Below are positions 1-18,284 of a stretch of DNA of 20,056 nt, one piece after another. The notes under the pieces are model-generated. The model was not told the origin of the DNA, did no database searches, and saw only the letters and a program-made list of their open reading frames with translations. Source of the stretch: a virus; the IMG/VR virus record IMGVR_UViG_3300035698_003416, positions 1-20,056 of that record; one strand, 5' to 3'. Numbering within the stretch: the first letter of the stretch is position 1; each line of letters begins with the position of its first letter. Both the position numbers and the translations under genes were made by a program.

Positions 1-210
1 GTGTATCAGCTAAAGATATTGTTGGATTTACATTAAGATTTAAAACTGGATTTACTTTTATAAAGTGTGTATCAGCTAAAGATATTGTTGGATTTACATT
101 AAGATTTAAAACTGGATTAGCTTGGATAAAGTGTGTATCAGCTAAAGATATTGTTGGATTTACATTAAGATTTAAAACTGGATTAGCTTGGATAAAGTGT
201 GTATCAGCTA
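1..210 (-). repeat. 66-bp in-frame tandem repeats (3 full copies plus a partial, continuing off the left edge)
   Basis: The motif gtgtatcagctaaagatatt begins at 1, 67 and 133, and its first 12 bases recur at 199, giving an exact period of 66 bp (22 codons). Copies 67-132 and 133-198 read identically. Copy 1-66 differs only in a short stretch that changes the encoded IQAN to IKVN. Identity at synonymous sites points to recent duplication or ongoing homogenisation. The array probably continues beyond base 1. Confidence 0.95.
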
Positions 211-661
211 TACTTATAGTAGCAATAACACTTTGAGCATGCCAACCATAATCACCTGTTGTAAATGTCACTTGTGCTAAACCAGAATAAACACCATCAT
301 AATATGTTCTAGCGTATAGGATGTATTCTGTATTATCTGTTAAGCCTTTAATTTGAACTATGCCTTTTTCCTCTTGAGAGTTAATTTGTTTTTGGTATGT
401 TATTGGTTCTACATTTTCTATTTCATAATAAATTCGTTGGTTGGCAAGTGCTTTCCATACATTATTATTTTTTAATCTAAATTGTACTATTGTTCTGTAT
501 TCTTTAAGATCAACAAATGAAGGTGCTACCATTTTACCAAAAGTAATAACACCATCTTGTACTAAACAATCAAGTGCAACATCTATTCCTGTTTCTGGAT
601 CTCGCATAACAACATCTGTTAAATTATCTGAACCTATATTAAATTTTAGATAGTCTGCCAT
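1..661 (-). CDS. Tail/baseplate-associated protein with FnIII-like segment and 22-residue tandem repeats (partial, 3' end outside window)
   Basis: The reading frame opens at the ATG whose first base is 661, after a TTAGGTG ribosome binding site, and runs off the left edge, so only about 220 N-terminal residues are seen. The protein starts MADYLKFNIGSDN. A middle stretch (roughly residues 90-145), containing GLTDNTEYILYAR and VTFTT, resembles a fibronectin type III strand pattern, which is common in phage tail proteins. From about residue 150 it turns into 22-residue repeats with the core ADTHFI(Q/K)(A/V)NPVLNLNVN, matching the 66-bp DNA repeats. The gene follows the hub and spike genes, so a baseplate-peripheral, fibre or adsorption role is plausible. 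That role is inferred from position and repeat content. The family itself is not recognised, and because the C-terminus is missing no receptor-binding domain can be judged. Confidence 0.75.
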   Translation of the reverse strand, partial: MADYLKFNIGSDNLTDVVMRDPETGIDVALDCLVQDGVITFGKMVAPSFVDLKEYRTIVQFRLKNNNVWKALANQRIYYEIENVEPITYQKQINSQEEKGIVQIKGLTDNTEYILYARTYYDGVYSGLAQVTFTTGDYGWHAQSVIATISIADTHFIQANPVLNLNVNPTISLADTHFIQANPVLNLNVNPTISLADTHFIKVNPVLNLNVNPTISLADT

Positions 662-11694: not shown

Positions 11695-11751
11695 TAGTTC
11701 ACCTTCCAAATAATAGAGTAATAACGCACTGTGTGCATTTTGAATCAGTAG

Positions 11752-11808
11752 TTATTTGTATAGATAACACAACTATGTGTTTATATAATATGTTATCTAT
11801 ACAAATAA
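11752..11808. repeat. 18-bp perfect inverted repeat in spacer between capsid gene and next gene
   Basis: TTATTTGTATAGATAACA (11752-11769) is exactly complementary to TGTTATCTATACAAATAA (11791-11808) across a 21-base spacer. The spacer edge can also form a smaller stem, AACACA with TGTGTT (11766-11771 and 11776-11781), mutually exclusive with the inner part of the long stem. It lies downstream, in the direction of transcription, of the UUCG hairpin and about 57 bases before the next start codon. Possible roles are an RNA processing or stability element, a second terminator, or a DNA-binding site for a dimeric protein. Confidence 0.9.
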
Positions 11809-11814
11809 ACATTA

Positions 11815-11840
11815 CCTCAGAGATCCGAAGATCCCTGAGG
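11815..11840 (-). terminator. UUCG-capped hairpin downstream of major capsid gene
   Basis: On the minus strand CCTCAGGGATC (11840-11830) pairs with GATCTCTGAGG (11825-11815), 11 bp with one G-U pair, closed by C(UUCG)G, an exceptionally stable tetraloop. A fairly U-rich AATGTTTATTTG follows. It stands about 42 bases after the capsid stop codon. This is a likely intrinsic terminator or mRNA 3'-end stabiliser that lets capsid protein be made in excess over the neck genes downstream. Confidence 0.8.
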
Positions 11841-11882
11841 AATGTATATTTTTATTATTGTACTTTGTTCAGTCAGTAATAC

Positions 11883-13559
11883 TTAGTCAGTAATTACAAA
11901 TGGATCTGTTCCGATACCAGCATCAGTTTCGATAGTACCATATTCAACAGTTCCAGCAGTACCGTCTTTAGCGATCATGTAGATAGGCATAGCCATTGGA
12001 TCGTTAACGATTGAACCAAGAACGAAGTAATCAGAGTTAACAACTAATTTACCATAAGACATTGTATAAGCTCTACGGATTTGGAAGTCATCAAGTGTTA
12101 CTGGTTGAGTTGCAACTACAGGAATGTAAGGTGCAAAGATAATACCAGCATCAAGATTATCTTGTTCATTTTTATAGATTACTGCCCAGTCATTTTCGCC
12201 CAATGAAGGAACGGCAATAACTTTAAATTTCTTAAGCTTACCTACTACAGCAGGTCCACCGATTTGAACTCCTGATTCAATTCCAGTGAATCCAGGTAAT
12301 GTTTCTACAACTGTTAATGCGTTAACACCAACGATTAAGATATTACCACGAACGCGTTTAGAAATTTTGTAAATATGATTAGATGCACCAATAACAGCAT
12401 CCATGAATGATTGTTTGTGCATTTCGTATAAACCGTTTGCAACTCCACCAGCTTTGTTCCATACTACTTTAGCTTCTGCAGATTGCATAATTTCAAATAC
12501 GAAGTCTAAATCTGTTTCACGTTTCAATTCAAACATTGCAGCTTCAGCAAGTTTGTCTTCTAATTTCACACCGAATTGAGCTTCGAAACCATAACCAGCT
12601 TGGAATGAATAATTAGTTTTGACAGTACGTGCCATAGCAGTAATATCTCTTGAGTCAACGTCAGCATTTAATTCAGGTACTTCAGTTGGAGCATACTTAT
12701 TGTCATAGCTATAAGTAATTTCTAAGTCGCCTACAAATGGATTACCTGTAGTTAATGCAGTTAAGAAATTCATAGTTACTTGAATAGTAGTTGCGCCAGC
12801 AGTTACTATACCTGTATCGAATGTTTGTTCAGTTCCAGCAGCATTTGTATAAACACCATGGAAAGTTGTAGCTGTATCCCATACAATTACACAATCTTCA
12901 ATTAGTAATGAACTTGCAACGTAAGGTGCCCAAATTGGAACTGCACCAGAATCATAAGCGAATTCAACACCTGTGTCAAGTGTCATTTGTGCATCAGCAA
13001 CAGGAAGTAAGTTTACTAAATAACTAGTAAAGTTCTTATCTGTGTTGATTGCGAATGGAGTGATTAGTGCATCGCCTTTGGCAGTGCTACCTTTTGCTTT
13101 TCCTGCTACAGTGTTGTAGTAGAAGATCATTGCTTTTTCAGTTTTAATCGGTTGTGTAGACGCGATTTCTGTAGCAATAAGATTTGGGAAATATCCGAAG
13201 AATATATCGAAATAAGTCTTCATTAAGCCAACACCAGCACCGGCACCTGTTACACCGTAACTAGCTGCACCAGCTTGAGTTGCTTCATTAATTATTCTCT
13301 GAGCATTAACCATATTTTCCGCTAAAGTTTTATATAGATGAGTTTTTGCATCATCGAAGCCTTTAGTACGTCTGGAAATGTCTTCAGTAAGAGTTCTAGG
13401 TTTTGCAACTGCACGAGTGCTTTCTTGTTTAACAATTACTTTTTTATCCTTAGCTTTTACACTTTCGGTAAATACAGGTTGTTTAACAGCTTTGTCTGCA
13501 GCTTCTCTTTCTGCTTTACGTTCTTGCAATTTCTTTAAAATTTGTTCTCTTGTTACCAT
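11883..13559 (-). CDS. Major capsid protein (T4 gp23-like)
   Basis: The 558-residue protein forms the head shell. The N-terminus (residues 1-60) is charged and helical (MVTREQILKKLQERKAEREA), as expected for a delta/propeptide region facing the scaffold. L-T-E at residues 57-59 fits the (L/I)-x-E cleavage rule of gp21-type proteases, and L-A-E at 79-81 is an alternative. Later stretches match gp23-type capsid proteins in arrangement: PNLIATEIASTQPIKTEKAM, then near the C-terminus DAGIIFAPYIPVVATQPVT and FQIRRAYTMSYGKLVVNSDY. The ATG follows AAAAAGGAGAAAC. It lies directly after the protease/scaffold gene, with a 117-base spacer before it, and is followed by two hairpins. The size and C-terminal FAPYIP segment make this call strong, although overall similarity to T4 is low. 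Confidence 0.85.
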   Translation of the reverse strand: MVTREQILKKLQERKAEREAADKAVKQPVFTESVKAKDKKVIVKQESTRAVAKPRTLTEDISRRTKGFDDAKTHLYKTLAENMVNAQRIINEATQAGAASYGVTGAGAGVGLMKTYFDIFFGYFPNLIATEIASTQPIKTEKAMIFYYNTVAGKAKGSTAKGDALITPFAINTDKNFTSYLVNLLPVADAQMTLDTGVEFAYDSGAVPIWAPYVASSLLIEDCVIVWDTATTFHGVYTNAAGTEQTFDTGIVTAGATTIQVTMNFLTALTTGNPFVGDLEITYSYDNKYAPTEVPELNADVDSRDITAMARTVKTNYSFQAGYGFEAQFGVKLEDKLAEAAMFELKRETDLDFVFEIMQSAEAKVVWNKAGGVANGLYEMHKQSFMDAVIGASNHIYKISKRVRGNILIVGVNALTVVETLPGFTGIESGVQIGGPAVVGKLKKFKVIAVPSLGENDWAVIYKNEQDNLDAGIIFAPYIPVVATQPVTLDDFQIRRAYTMSYGKLVVNSDYFVLGSIVNDPMAMPIYMIAKDGTAGTVEYGTIETDAGIGTDPFVITD

Positions 13560-13676: not shown

Positions 13677-15764
13677 TTATTCACCAGGTTTTAAATCTGC
13701 TAAGTATCCTAATTCTTCATCTGTTAATTCATCTAGATCTTCATCTGTTAGATTTTCTAAATCAATAGCTTCTTCTTCATCTGTTAGATCATCTTCTAAG
13801 TCATCTTCAAGATTATCTTCAAGATTATCTTCTAAGTCGTCCCCAAGGTCCTCTAAATCAATTTCAGATTCTTCAGCGGGTATTAAATATTCTTTAAGTT
13901 CTGTTAACAGCGCGAATACTTCTTTAATAGTGGGTTCTGGTTCTTCTTCGTCATCTTCATTTTCTTCGTCTTCAACGTCATCTTCATTTTCTTCGTCTTC
14001 ATTTTCTTCGTCTTCATTTTCTTCGTCTTCAACATCATCTTCATTTTCAACATCATCATCAGTTAACTGTAATTCTTTTTCTTTTTCTTCATCAACGAAA
14101 TCTTCAATTGCATTACCTTCAACAATTACATGATTGTGATTAATACGAAGCAGTTTAGTTTCAGTTAATTCTCTTAGCTGTGCATTAATAAGAACACGCT
14201 CTGCAATATTACATTTTACATCAAATCTGATTTTTTCGCCATATTTGTCTAATTCATAATATATACCATTCTCTTTTAATACTTTGATCATTTTCTTAGC
14301 ACGAGCTTCTGTTAAGTTCATTCTATAGAATTTTCTATCTGTTGACATAATATCCATTTTACTCTCTCCTAACACGCTTAGTGCTGATTTATTTTTCTCT
14401 AGTAACTCAACTACTAGTTGAATTGAGTTATCTTTTTGTGATGCTAAATAGTTTACTAACTCTCGAGGATCCATAGTATAAATGAAATCTACATTATCTT
14501 TTACTAATAGGTGCGCAATTTGTTTCATTGTAACCGCTAATAAATCAGTGAACTTATCATTATCAATATAGGCTATTGCAACTTTAGCTTGTAATCTTAG
14601 GTTTGCATTATTATACTTTGCATATACTTCAGGATTTGCTTGCTCAAGTCCATCTTCAAACGTTGTCATAAGACCACTAAGTGAGATGAATCCAAGATTT
14701 AATAATTGATTAGCATTAGCTTTTGTCCACAGTTTCCTATTTTCTTCCTTACTAGTTTCTGTAAGGACTTCTGTGTGTTCTACTGTTACAGCTTCATCAA
14801 TTTCTATTGGTTTTTGATCAATATCTTCAAGTTCTGCTTGAACTTCATATAATGCATCTTTAATTTGTTGAACAATTTTTTCACGGTTTCCACCATATTT
14901 TTTCTCAAACTCTTCATCAGACATTTTATTTGCATTATATAAACCATTTTGATACTCATTTTCTTTATCTCTTAATGCATCTACATATTTTTTCTTAGCA
15001 TCTTTAACAGCATTAGCTTCGAATTTGAATGTTTGGGTTTTTTCCTCTTCTTCAGGTTTATCTAAGTTTTCAGCAAATTTAGTATAAACTTTCTCATGCT
15101 CTTTATCATCTTTAGCTAAGTCTTTGATTGATTCAGTTAGTGGTCTTAATTTCTTAGACCCCTTTTTTGATTCATTCAAGTTTGCGACTGCTGTTTGGAA
15201 TGAAGGGTTATAAACAAAGTCAAATGACATAAGTTGAAAACTCTCAGGTATGATTGCTTCTACGTATCCATCTGCTTCTTCAAGTGTTTCAGAATCACCA
15301 AGTGCTCTTGACGATACACCAAGTAAGTCTCCTCCACCTTTTAGTTTTGCATATTCTAAGAATGTTTTAATTATCCTACCTTGAGGGTTATTTAGAATGT
15401 CTGCTGAACCATCCCATGAACCATCGTCATTTCTATGTACATCAGACCAAGCAATAGCAGCTTCGTTTAGTGTGAGCTCCGCTCTATCATCTAATGGGTG
15501 ATCAACACTACCAAATAATGATGTAGGTTTTAGTTTACCACTTTCGTCAATAAACTTACCACCTTTACCAAATGAGTCATGTTGTGCCCATACAGCTTCA
15601 GAATATCTAGTACGATTCTGTGAGATTTGACCTTCAATTGTCATGCCTTTAACATTAAATGCTCCTAATATAGGACTATCAGTATTATATCCTTTGTCCG
15701 ATTTCTTATAAGATTCTACAATCCCTACATTAAAACTCGTTTCTTTAATTAGTTTTTTAGCCAT
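13677..15764 (-). CDS. Prohead protease (T4 gp21-like) fused to a long acidic scaffold-like region
   Basis: The protein has 695 residues, while T4 gp21 has about 212. Residues 38-190 match the gp21 plan: VKGMTIEGQISQNRTRYSEAVW, with GSVDHP giving the catalytic His (H89), then LLGVSSRALG giving the catalytic Ser (S151 or S152; T4 has GVSSRGLG). Residues 195-345 are helical and highly charged. Residues 470-555 look like a small folded domain (MDIMSTDRKFYRMNLTEARA). Residues 555-690 are extremely acidic, with repeated NEDEE and DLEDNLED units. L-(N/T/G)-E motifs at 196-198, 209-211, 334-336, 465-467, 484-486, 533-535 and 620-622 fit the (L/I)-x-E cleavage rule, so the protein may cut itself. It directly precedes the capsid gene. 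The protease assignment is strong; the scaffold role of the rest is inferred from composition and context. Confidence 0.8.
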   Translation of the reverse strand: MAKKLIKETSFNVGIVESYKKSDKGYNTDSPILGAFNVKGMTIEGQISQNRTRYSEAVWAQHDSFGKGGKFIDESGKLKPTSLFGSVDHPLDDRAELTLNEAAIAWSDVHRNDDGSWDGSADILNNPQGRIIKTFLEYAKLKGGGDLLGVSSRALGDSETLEEADGYVEAIIPESFQLMSFDFVYNPSFQTAVANLNESKKGSKKLRPLTESIKDLAKDDKEHEKVYTKFAENLDKPEEEEKTQTFKFEANAVKDAKKKYVDALRDKENEYQNGLYNANKMSDEEFEKKYGGNREKIVQQIKDALYEVQAELEDIDQKPIEIDEAVTVEHTEVLTETSKEENRKLWTKANANQLLNLGFISLSGLMTTFEDGLEQANPEVYAKYNNANLRLQAKVAIAYIDNDKFTDLLAVTMKQIAHLLVKDNVDFIYTMDPRELVNYLASQKDNSIQLVVELLEKNKSALSVLGESKMDIMSTDRKFYRMNLTEARAKKMIKVLKENGIYYELDKYGEKIRFDVKCNIAERVLINAQLRELTETKLLRINHNHVIVEGNAIEDFVDEEKEKELQLTDDDVENEDDVEDEENEDEENEDEENEDDVEDEENEDDEEEPEPTIKEVFALLTELKEYLIPAEESEIDLEDLGDDLEDNLEDNLEDDLEDDLTDEEEAIDLENLTDEDLDELTDEELGYLADLKPGE
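13930..14060 (-). repeat. Short tandem repeats encoding acidic NEDEE-type runs
   Basis: On the plus strand, units of about 15 bases built from cttcgtcttcattttcttcg recur with minor changes, giving the repeated ENEDEE/ENEDDVED blocks at protein residues about 572-607. A second run at 13790-13845 (variants of cttcaagattat and cttctaagtca) encodes DLEDNLED-type units. Such runs expand and contract easily, so length differences between relatives are likely. Confidence 0.85.
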
Positions 15765-16319: not shown

Positions 16320-16559
16320 CTAGATCTTTTTAACTTGGTAAGCTCTCAATCCATTTTCTTCAAATTGCTTGTAAAGAAATTCTACTTGATCTCCTACGCT
16401 TAAGGTTTTCTTACCTTCCATAATGATGGCTGAATAATGCACATAAATATCTCTGTCTAAATCATCTTCACATGATATAAAGCCATAACCATTCACAGAA
16501 TTGAAGCTCTTAACTACTCCACGTCCTTGTTTTGCAATTGTATTGTCTTCTGTATTCAT
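16320..16559 (-). CDS. Cold-shock-domain protein
   Basis: A 79-residue protein with one cold-shock domain: GRGVVKSFNSVNGYGFISCE (RNP1 at 24-31), RDIYVHYSAI (RNP2 at about 39-44) and the C-terminal GDQVEFLYKQFEENGLRAYQV. Such domains bind single-stranded RNA or DNA and melt secondary structure. The usual W in the first strand (VKWFN) is S18 here, so one stacking aromatic is missing while the RNP aromatics remain (Y25, F27, Y39, Y42). An eight-residue charged N-terminal extension precedes the domain. The ATG follows AGAAGGAGAAAAGTT. The gene lies between the reverse transcriptase and the head genes and has its own upstream spacer with a possible promoter. Either a general RNA chaperone for the phage or a partner for the neighbouring reverse transcriptase would fit. 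The family call is secure. Confidence 0.92.
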   Translation of the reverse strand: MNTEDNTIAKQGRGVVKSFNSVNGYGFISCEDDLDRDIYVHYSAIIMEGKKTLSVGDQVEFLYKQFEENGLRAYQVKKI

Positions 16560-16619
16560 AACTTTTCTCCTTCTGTCTTTTCGACTAACTATTCTTGATG
16601 TGTATTACACCCCTGTAAA

Positions 16620-16648
16620 AAAATATGCTTACACATATTAATATACAA
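16620..16648 (-). promoter_or_regulatory. Possible sigma70-type promoter upstream of cold-shock gene
   Basis: On the minus strand TTGTAT (16648-16643) and TATTTT (16625-16620) are separated by 17 bases, inside the 115-base spacer between the reverse transcriptase and the cold-shock gene. Both boxes are imperfect and the region is very AT-rich, so chance is a real possibility. It would give an untranslated leader of roughly 50 bases. Confidence 0.25.
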
Positions 16649-16674
16649 CTTCCATGTTTTTTTCGCGCGCAAAG

Positions 16675-17868
16675 TCAATGTTTTTGTTTTCTGATCTTAT
16701 AATATTCTGCAACAAGGCTCTTATAGCCCATGTGTTTGATGTCTTTGTATGATAATCTATAGAACTTTTTACCACGGTGCCATGTTCCAGAATCCAAAAA
16801 ACGAATACAAGTAACGAAGTATAGATCTAAATACTTGAGACTTTCAGTTGTTGAGATATTGGGTAAATACCAACGGCTCCAATTGATTGAATCGTCTTGA
16901 TCTGAGTAAAGTTTTTGATTAATAAGGCTAATATAGTTTCTAAGAGCTTTATACTTAGGAACTCTTTTCTTTTTCATCCATATACGATACCATTTAGCAC
17001 GACGTTTGAAACGACTTTTCATTTTTGCTAATGCATCTTCTGAAATGTCTGTTATATTTCCCTTATGTTTAAATCCTAAGAAGGTGATCCCAGTTCTTAG
17101 TGTCATAGTCTTCATCTTTTTGGGATTTAATCTTACTCCTGCTTCAGCTACACCTTTTTTGAAAGCTTCCAAAGCCTCTTCGCCATGTATCAAAGTATCA
17201 TCTGCGTAACGTATATAATGATACTTGCGCTCATACATCAGCGTATCTACTTTGTGCATAAAGACGTTTGCTAAGATGCCGGCTATTGGTGAACCAGCCA
17301 TAACTCCTTTAGTTTCTACAGTTTCAATCTTGTCTCCCACGAATACTTGTTGTTCACGTAATAGCTTCATGATAAAAATATGGAGATCTTTGTCCTCTAA
17401 ATCTAGAAAGTCAATTAGTTTAGCATCTAGTAGATTAATATCTATAGAGTTAAAATAGTCTGAAAAGTCATTTTTATATACAAGATCATCTGGTTTCAGA
17501 TGAAAGCTTCCTAATATGCTAAAAGCCGATCTCACTGAACGGCCTTGTGTATATGCAATACTATTTTTACAGAATGAATTATTATACTTTGACAACATAT
17601 ATTTTCCTACTACTTTTAGTATTGATCTATATGGTTCTGGGTACACATACACAATTCTCTTCTTGCTCGTATTGTAGTGGCTTATCTGAACTAATCTAGA
17701 TAAACTAAATGTATCCATAAACTCCTTATCAAATTTTAAATATTGTTCATCTTTAATAATCTTCTTAACTGTCTTTATTGTTTTGTGATCTGGATAGTCC
17801 TTTTCTTCTTCTAATGCTAAAAATTCTTCCCAGGTCTCTCTTTGTGTTACTAACTCGTATAAACTCAT
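16675..17868 (-). CDS. Reverse transcriptase of uncertain class (YADD active site)
   Basis: The protein has 397 residues. Fingers/palm motifs appear in order: KKRIVYVYPEPYRSILKVVG (residues 69-88), AYTQGRSVRSAF (105-116), motif A KNDFSDYFNSID (132-143, catalytic D134), GVMAGSPIAGILANVFM (188-204), motif C YIRYADDTLIHG (218-229, catalytic D223/D224) and ITFLGFKHKG (261-270). A basic helical segment (KMKSRFKRRAKWYRIWMKKK) and about 90 C-terminal residues follow, possibly a thumb plus a family-specific domain. The SP in GSPIAG argues against a diversity-generating element, where SQ is usual. No HNH domain or intron domain V is visible, and the upstream gap of 38 bases leaves no room for a retron RNA. 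The start follows an excellent AGGAGGTAG site. It lies between the holin and cold-shock genes. A group II-like or unknown-group RT is my best guess. RT activity is strongly predicted; its role is unknown. Confidence 0.88.
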   Translation of the reverse strand: MSLYELVTQRETWEEFLALEEEKDYPDHKTIKTVKKIIKDEQYLKFDKEFMDTFSLSRLVQISHYNTSKKRIVYVYPEPYRSILKVVGKYMLSKYNNSFCKNSIAYTQGRSVRSAFSILGSFHLKPDDLVYKNDFSDYFNSIDINLLDAKLIDFLDLEDKDLHIFIMKLLREQQVFVGDKIETVETKGVMAGSPIAGILANVFMHKVDTLMYERKYHYIRYADDTLIHGEEALEAFKKGVAEAGVRLNPKKMKTMTLRTGITFLGFKHKGNITDISEDALAKMKSRFKRRAKWYRIWMKKKRVPKYKALRNYISLINQKLYSDQDDSINWSRWYLPNISTTESLKYLDLYFVTCIRFLDSGTWHRGKKFYRLSYKDIKHMGYKSLVAEYYKIRKQKH

Positions 17869-17906: not shown

Positions 17907-18284
17907 TTATTTTATCTGTCTTCCAATAATTGCTTCAATTTGATTTGTAAGCCAAACTTCCACATCTCCGAAATACTTTGCAATTAGTGCTTTAGTATGT
18001 GCGGACATAAGTGATAGTGCTTGTACTTTAGCTGCGTACAGTGCTCCTTTAGCTTCTTCTTTGTTGAAGTTACCATCTTTCTTAAGTTCTTCAACAACTG
18101 TTTGTTGAATTGTCATTACTACATCTTCAATGATTCCTACTGTAGCATTTGATACTTCTCTAAGTTCTTCATTCTTAATCTTAGAACTTAGCCAAGCTCT
18201 TAACATAATAAATCCATAACCTATTGCTCCTGTTAATACTGTTCCTAATGCTGTGTATAATATTTCTAATAATTGATCATTCAT
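17907..18284 (-). CDS. LLH-type phage holin
   Basis: A 125-residue protein with one N-terminal membrane segment (about residues 6-29, ILYTALGTVLTGAIGYGFIML), then a cytoplasmic helical part with VSNATVGIIEDVVMTIQQTV VEELKKDGNF in sequence, and KEEAKGALYAAKVQALSLMS. This is the layout of the LL-H phage holin family: one transmembrane helix, then VV..VEQ....K....K...A......L. Holins collect in the host membrane and trigger lysis by releasing or activating the endolysin. The ATG follows TTAGAGGAGAC. No endolysin is seen next to it: the upstream neighbours are unknown proteins and the downstream neighbour is a reverse transcriptase. The endolysin is probably outside the window. Confidence 0.8.
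   Translation of the reverse strand: MNDQLLEILYTALGTVLTGAIGYGFIMLRAWLSSKIKNEELREVSNATVGIIEDVVMTIQQTVVEELKKDGNFNKEEAKGALYAAKVQALSLMSAHTKALIAKYFGDVEVWLTNQIEAIIGRQIK

What the first reader, a model, noticed from the sequence alone, without database searches (positions are those of the whole stretch)
16675..17868. Orphan reverse transcriptase in a phage late operon, of no standard class I can assign
All core RT motifs are present (D134; YADD at 221-224; GSPIAG; FLGF). No domain V, HNH, retron-sized non-coding RNA or template/variable repeat pair is visible beside the gene. The motif GVMAGSPIAGILANVF is nearer to group II-like RTs than to DGR RTs. The C-terminal 90 residues (with NWSRWYLPNIS and YKSLVAEYYK) may be a family-specific domain. 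Cargo RTs in phages are often anti-phage, template-dependent or independent polymerases, or repair enzymes, so this could be a new element or a superinfection-exclusion system.
Basis: partly seen in the sequence, partly recalled or inferred. Interest (0 to 1): 0.75.

Follow-up and report, generated by a model that had tools for sequence, protein, structure and literature searches.

The report
UG26 reverse transcriptase, core phage gene
A tailed bacteriophage carries an intact reverse transcriptase of a recognised but unstudied class (UG26), and every relative whose DNA covers the spot has the same gene at the same place beside the capsid genes, so it looks like a regular phage gene and not passing cargo, though what it makes is unknown.

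Summary
The ORF and motifs are as described. The RT can be classed: it matches the whole PADLOC model RT_UG26 (307 bits, 1-397 of 398; next family 109 bits). The tests available do not support DGR, group II intron, retron or G2L4. It is not loose cargo: in 7 of 7 related phage contigs that cover the place it lies directly before a cold-shock protein (CSP) gene, then a presumed prohead protease/scaffold gene and a Gp23-type capsid gene. Its pairwise identities track those of the capsid protein (r 0.75) and protease (r 0.74). No ncRNA is conserved beside it; the conserved block in the RT-CSP gap looks like a phage promoter. YADD is invariant, and so are two tyrosines near the C-terminus that recall DRT9's priming tyrosines. 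Best reading: a domesticated UG26 RT, probably making DNA as DRT enzymes do, kept for a late lytic-cycle function; defence against competing phages is the main rival. UG26 in viruses was already reported, role unknown (PMC10504277). New here: the fixed core position and the CSP neighbour.

The parts
16675..17868 (-). UG26-class reverse transcriptase, 397 aa
   Evidence: PADLOC RT_UG26 4.4e-92, full length; RVT_1; AlphaFold2 pLDDT 86.8
17197..17208 (-). YADD catalytic motif, residues 221-224
   Evidence: invariant in seven homologues
16699..16704 (-). Tyr389-Tyr390 near the C-terminus, a possible protein-priming site (hypothesis)
   Evidence: invariant in seven homologues; analogy to DRT9 Y496/Y498
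16560..16674 (-). RT-CSP intergenic region with a promoter-like AT-rich block at about 16624-16643
   Evidence: conserved block in the alignment; related motif repeated in the sense direction in the 82-kb relative; not structured in the window (z -0.5)
16320..16559 (-). cold-shock (CSD) protein, 79 aa, first gene after the RT
   Evidence: Pfam CSD 4.1e-19; present after the RT in 7 of 7 phages
17907..18284 (-). holin-like protein, directly before the RT
   Evidence: phrog_13712 holin 5.8e-19
13677..15764 (-). presumed prohead protease/scaffold protein (inferred from position and conservation)
   Evidence: no profile hit; same place as the annotated protease in Listeria phage LIS04 and Maribacter phage Colly_1; conserved in all seven phages
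11883..13559 (-). Gp23-type major capsid protein
   Evidence: Pfam Gp23 1.1e-30

Best explanation
The gene encodes a catalytically intact UG26-class reverse transcriptase that has become a core gene of an uncultivated clade of T4-like myophages. Shown: the class, intact motifs, the fixed place ahead of the cold-shock protein and capsid genes, and divergence that tracks the capsid genes. Inferred: it is transcribed with the genes upstream of it, ahead of the promoter that starts the CSP/capsid unit. Inferred and least certain: it works like its DRT cousins, synthesising DNA during infection, possibly primed from its own C-terminal tyrosines and either without a template or on an RNA that is not encoded next to it, in service of the phage's own late lytic cycle, with the phage cold-shock protein perhaps handling the RNA or single-stranded DNA.
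For: UG26 model matched end to end in the window (307 bits) and in four relatives (310-327 bits), with controls going to their own models. RT-CSP-protease-capsid order in 7 of 7 contigs that cover the place. RT identity tracks MCP and protease (r 0.75 and 0.74; MCP with protease 0.79). Catalytic and C-terminal residues invariant. Fold nearest to GsI-IIC (TM 0.67), G2L4 (0.56) and DRT9 (0.55). Promoter-like motif repeated in the 82-kb relative.
Against: No product, template or phenotype is known. No conserved cis ncRNA, whereas the class 2 DRTs studied have one. The promoter-like block between RT and CSP suggests separate transcription units, which weakens the idea of an RT-CSP pair. In the model the two tyrosines lie in a helix, not in a free tail. 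Seven contigs is a small sample, and relatives were sought with queries that favour the same lineage.
Confidence: 0.5

Rival explanations
1. The RT is a phage-carried defence system of the DRT type that blocks competing phages (superinfection exclusion), which happens to be fixed in this lineage.
For: The related UG groups with a known function (DRT2, DRT9, DRT10 and others) are anti-phage systems (PMC12483538, PMC12632851, PMC13174585); the match is to a PADLOC DRT model.
Against: Defence cargo usually varies between close phages; here it is present in 7 of 7, at one place, and diverges in step with capsid genes. No effector or conserved cis ncRNA beside it.
Confidence: 0.28
2. The RT is a repair or replication polymerase for phage DNA, working like the G2L4 RT in microhomology-mediated end joining.
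For: The fold is close to GsI-IIC and G2L4 RTs; no RNA partner is conserved beside it.
Against: YADD instead of the YIDD that marks G2L4 RTs; it sits in the late structural module and not with replication genes; the sequence goes to UG26.
Confidence: 0.12
3. It belongs to a DGR, retron or intron whose RNA or repeats lie elsewhere in the unseen part of the genome.
For: The window is a 20-kb fragment. The 82-kb relative has a strongly structured RNA directly after the RT, with a second copy elsewhere.
Against: No A-biased repeat pair in the window or the 82-kb contig (two short pairs of 49-60 bases in one other relative do not include the RT region and were not taken as a DGR); no Rfam intron; retron and group II NCBIfam scores far below cut-off; the structured element is absent from six of the eight RT-CSP gaps.
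Confidence: 0.07

Closest known systems
UG26 reverse transcriptases (PADLOC RT_UG26; reported in cold-seep viruses, PMC10504277)
   Same: Full-length profile match including the C-terminal region; found in viruses
   Different: The function of UG26 is unknown; the fixed place beside CSP and capsid genes is not described in the papers that could be searched
DRT9 (UG28) and other class 2 DRTs
   Same: RT fold (TM 0.55); conserved tyrosines near the C-terminus
   Different: Only about 70-84 bits to the Drt9 model; no conserved cis ncRNA; the gene lies in a phage core module
Group II intron RTs (GsI-IIC) and G2L4 RT
   Same: Palm and thumb fold (TM 0.67 and 0.56); YADD as in group II RTs
   Different: No intron RNA; 88.7 bits against a 300-bit NCBIfam cut-off; not the YIDD of G2L4

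Membership tests
UG26 RT | full-length match to the UG26 profile, well above other RT profiles | tested here: met
   307 bits over 1-397/398 against 109 for UG27; relatives 310-327; control RTs of other classes at most 142 and only over the RT domain
UG26 RT | position inside the UG26 clade of a tree with reference UG sequences | not tested
   reference UG sequences not at hand; the classification paper is not held
Class 2 DRT (DRT2, DRT9, DRT10) | cis-encoded ncRNA beside the RT | tested here: not met
   upstream gap about 10-40 nt; RT-CSP gap unstructured in the window and most relatives; no Rfam hit; a structured RNA in two phages only
Class 2 DRT (DRT2, DRT9, DRT10) | protein-primed, RNA-templated DNA synthesis and anti-phage activity | not testable with these tools
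   needs biochemistry and plaque assays
Diversity-generating retroelement | TR/VR pair with adenine-specific differences | tested here: not met
   none in the window or the 82-kb contig; the window's own genome is incomplete
Group II intron | intron RNA (domain V) around the ORF | tested here: not met
   no Rfam match; NCBIfam group_II_RT_mat 88.7 bits against a cut-off of 300
Retron | retron RT profile and msr-msd RNA beside the RT | tested here: not met
   St85 model 47 bits against a cut-off of 235; no structured RNA beside the window RT
G2L4 RT | YIDD active site | tested here: not met
   YADD in all members; feature from PMC12337344

The most novel reading that the evidence does not exclude
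UG26 is a reverse transcriptase that serves the lytic cycle of a dsDNA phage as a core late gene, making a DNA product that the phage itself needs (for instance in late gene control, head assembly or host takeover) and not for mobility, diversification or defence.
Probability: 0.3. Interest if true: 0.85.

Novelty: new member of a known kind. Interest (0 to 1): 0.52.

Why it matters
The UG/Abi RTs with a known function are defence enzymes. A UG class fixed beside the capsid genes of a phage lineage, with an intact active site, would mean either that phages use such an enzyme for their own development or that a defence enzyme has become a permanent phage gene. Either can be tested once the protein is expressed or a member phage is cultured.

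Tried and rejected
DGR (no TR/VR). Group II intron, retron, G2L4. A cis ncRNA in the RT-CSP gap: the conserved block is better explained as a promoter, because in the 82-kb relative the same motif also occurs at other places in the sense direction. More UG26 relatives by DNA patterns for KGVMAGSP, RYADDTL and NWSxxWYxPN: only the same phages, chance matches and unrelated RTs. UG26 in 125 Cloacimonadota genomes: one true member, on the phage contig already found; the other hits that I read are group II or DGR-type RTs. Plasmids and cultured phages: listed hits are at most about 30% identical. CTTACACATA/TATGTGTAAG as inverted flanks of the window's RT: no counterpart before the RT in relatives with 9-nt upstream gaps, taken as chance plus promoter. 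The 63-nt core of the structured element in the 82-kb phage: found nowhere else in IMG/VR by exact match.

Full report
Observation. The ORF 16675-17868 (-) encodes 397 aa. Pfam RVT_1 matches residues 67-267 (E 6.4e-19). The surroundings are late genes of a T4-like myophage: Gp23-type major capsid protein, sheath, tube, baseplate hub, holin. The window is a 20,056-base virus record, so the rest of its genome is not known.

Class. PADLOC's RT_UG26 model matches the whole protein (306.9 bits, 1-397 of 398); the next model (UG27) gets 109 bits. Four relatives score 310-327 bits. Controls in the same search: a DRT9 from another phage contig goes to Drt9 (644 bits), and a group II RT and a DGR-type RT go to the generic RT model, with UG26 at 142 and 120 bits over the RT domain only. 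The assignment to UG26 is therefore specific. NCBIfam's group II, retron St85 and Drt2 models are far below their cut-offs.

Relatives and synteny. Protein-guided scans found UG26 RTs in four IMG/VR contigs (L001-L004) and in one contig binned in a Cloacimonadota MAG (L005); a capsid-protein scan added an 82-kb contig (L007, G002). Identity to the window protein is 53-64%. In all seven phages the next gene is a cold-shock protein of 74-83 aa, followed, mostly after variable small genes, by the presumed prohead protease/scaffold gene and the capsid gene. Capsid relatives without an RT (L009, L010, L012) are contigs that begin downstream of the place. The nearest cultured phages by capsid protein that I opened (Listeria LIS04, Maribacter Colly_1; 25-28% identity) have no RT there, and no cultured phage has a close homologue. 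Across the seven phages RT identities (mean 60%) correlate with those of MCP (r 0.75) and protease (r 0.74), about as well as those two with each other (0.79); the small trees are not fully congruent, and many of their splits are weakly supported. Third codon positions differ more than first and second ones, as expected under purifying selection. The RT thus behaves as a core gene of this lineage.

Flanks. Upstream gaps are about 10-40 nt where they could be measured, too short for an ncRNA. The RT-CSP gap is 84-283 nt in the seven phages. Its conserved part is an AT-rich block close to TATATTATAT.TATGTAAG or TATAATATAGTGTAAG. In the 82-kb relative the latter occurs seven times in the sense direction (up to 3 mismatches; two antisense) against 0.2 expected, and in the window a related copy lies before the 203-aa gene. 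A phage promoter for the CSP/capsid unit explains this best. The window's own version in the RT-CSP gap is a weaker match. The gap is not structured in the window (z -0.5), Rfam finds nothing, and no DGR-like repeat pair was found. In two phages (G002 and L010, the latter without RT coverage) the region before the CSP does hold a strongly structured RNA; G002 has a second copy before a head-tail adaptor gene with the same core and hairpin loop but changed, still pairing stems. The other members do not share it, so it is left as an open lead.

Structure. AlphaFold2 with seven sequences gives pLDDT 86.8 and pTM 0.79. Foldseek places it nearest to the group II RT GsI-IIC (TM 0.67), then G2L4 (0.56) and DRT9 (0.55). 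The C-terminal 120 residues are helical, as in RT thumbs. Tyr389-Tyr390 are invariant close to the C-terminus; DRT9 primes DNA synthesis from two C-terminal tyrosines (PMC12483538, PMC12489045). In the model the UG26 pair lies in a helix, so the analogy is only a lead.

Mechanism. Shown: an intact, conserved RT of class UG26 at a fixed late-gene place. Inferred: it synthesises DNA during infection. Class 1 UG/Abi RTs work without a template and the class 2 RTs studied so far on a cis ncRNA (PMC13174585, PMC13275509). No cis ncRNA is conserved here, so either template-free synthesis or a template encoded elsewhere is implied. The constant linkage to capsid genes favours a role in the phage's own cycle over defence against competitors, but that is inference. 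The cold-shock protein could bind RNA or single-stranded DNA, yet it seems to start its own transcription unit, so a functional pair is not shown.

Novelty. UG26 RTs in viruses were noted in cold-seep data with roles unknown (PMC10504277). I found no paper that links a UG RT with a cold-shock protein or with a fixed place in a capsid module, but only an open-licence library could be searched and the main UG classification paper is not in it. I rate it a new member of a known but functionally unknown kind, in a new and testable context.

Noticed in passing
L060:10910-11075 and L062:4834-4990 (82-kb contig IMGVR_UViG_3300042271_000539): Two copies of a strongly structured RNA (z -5.7 and -7.7), one directly after the RT and one before a head-tail adaptor gene; about 60 identical core bases and a shared hairpin loop UCACUUCCGUUA, while the stems differ in sequence but still pair.
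   Followed up: partly
L010:55-250: Strongly structured RNA (z -9) just before the cold-shock protein gene of a further relative; the contig starts too late to show the RT.
   Followed up: partly
window 11710-11882 (- strand) and the same place in related phages: Two strong hairpins directly 3' of the capsid gene in the window and in its relatives, with stems of unrelated sequence; probably a terminator or mRNA stabiliser of the capsid message.
   Followed up: partly
L063:5214-11706: 26 tRNA genes and a tmRNA gene in the 82-kb relative.
   Followed up: no
L058:4657-6174 (- strand): A full-length DRT9 RT (644 bits to the PADLOC model) in an IMG/VR phage contig.
   Followed up: no
window 1-230: Tandem repeat with a 66-base period at the window's edge, copies 93% identical.
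   Followed up: no
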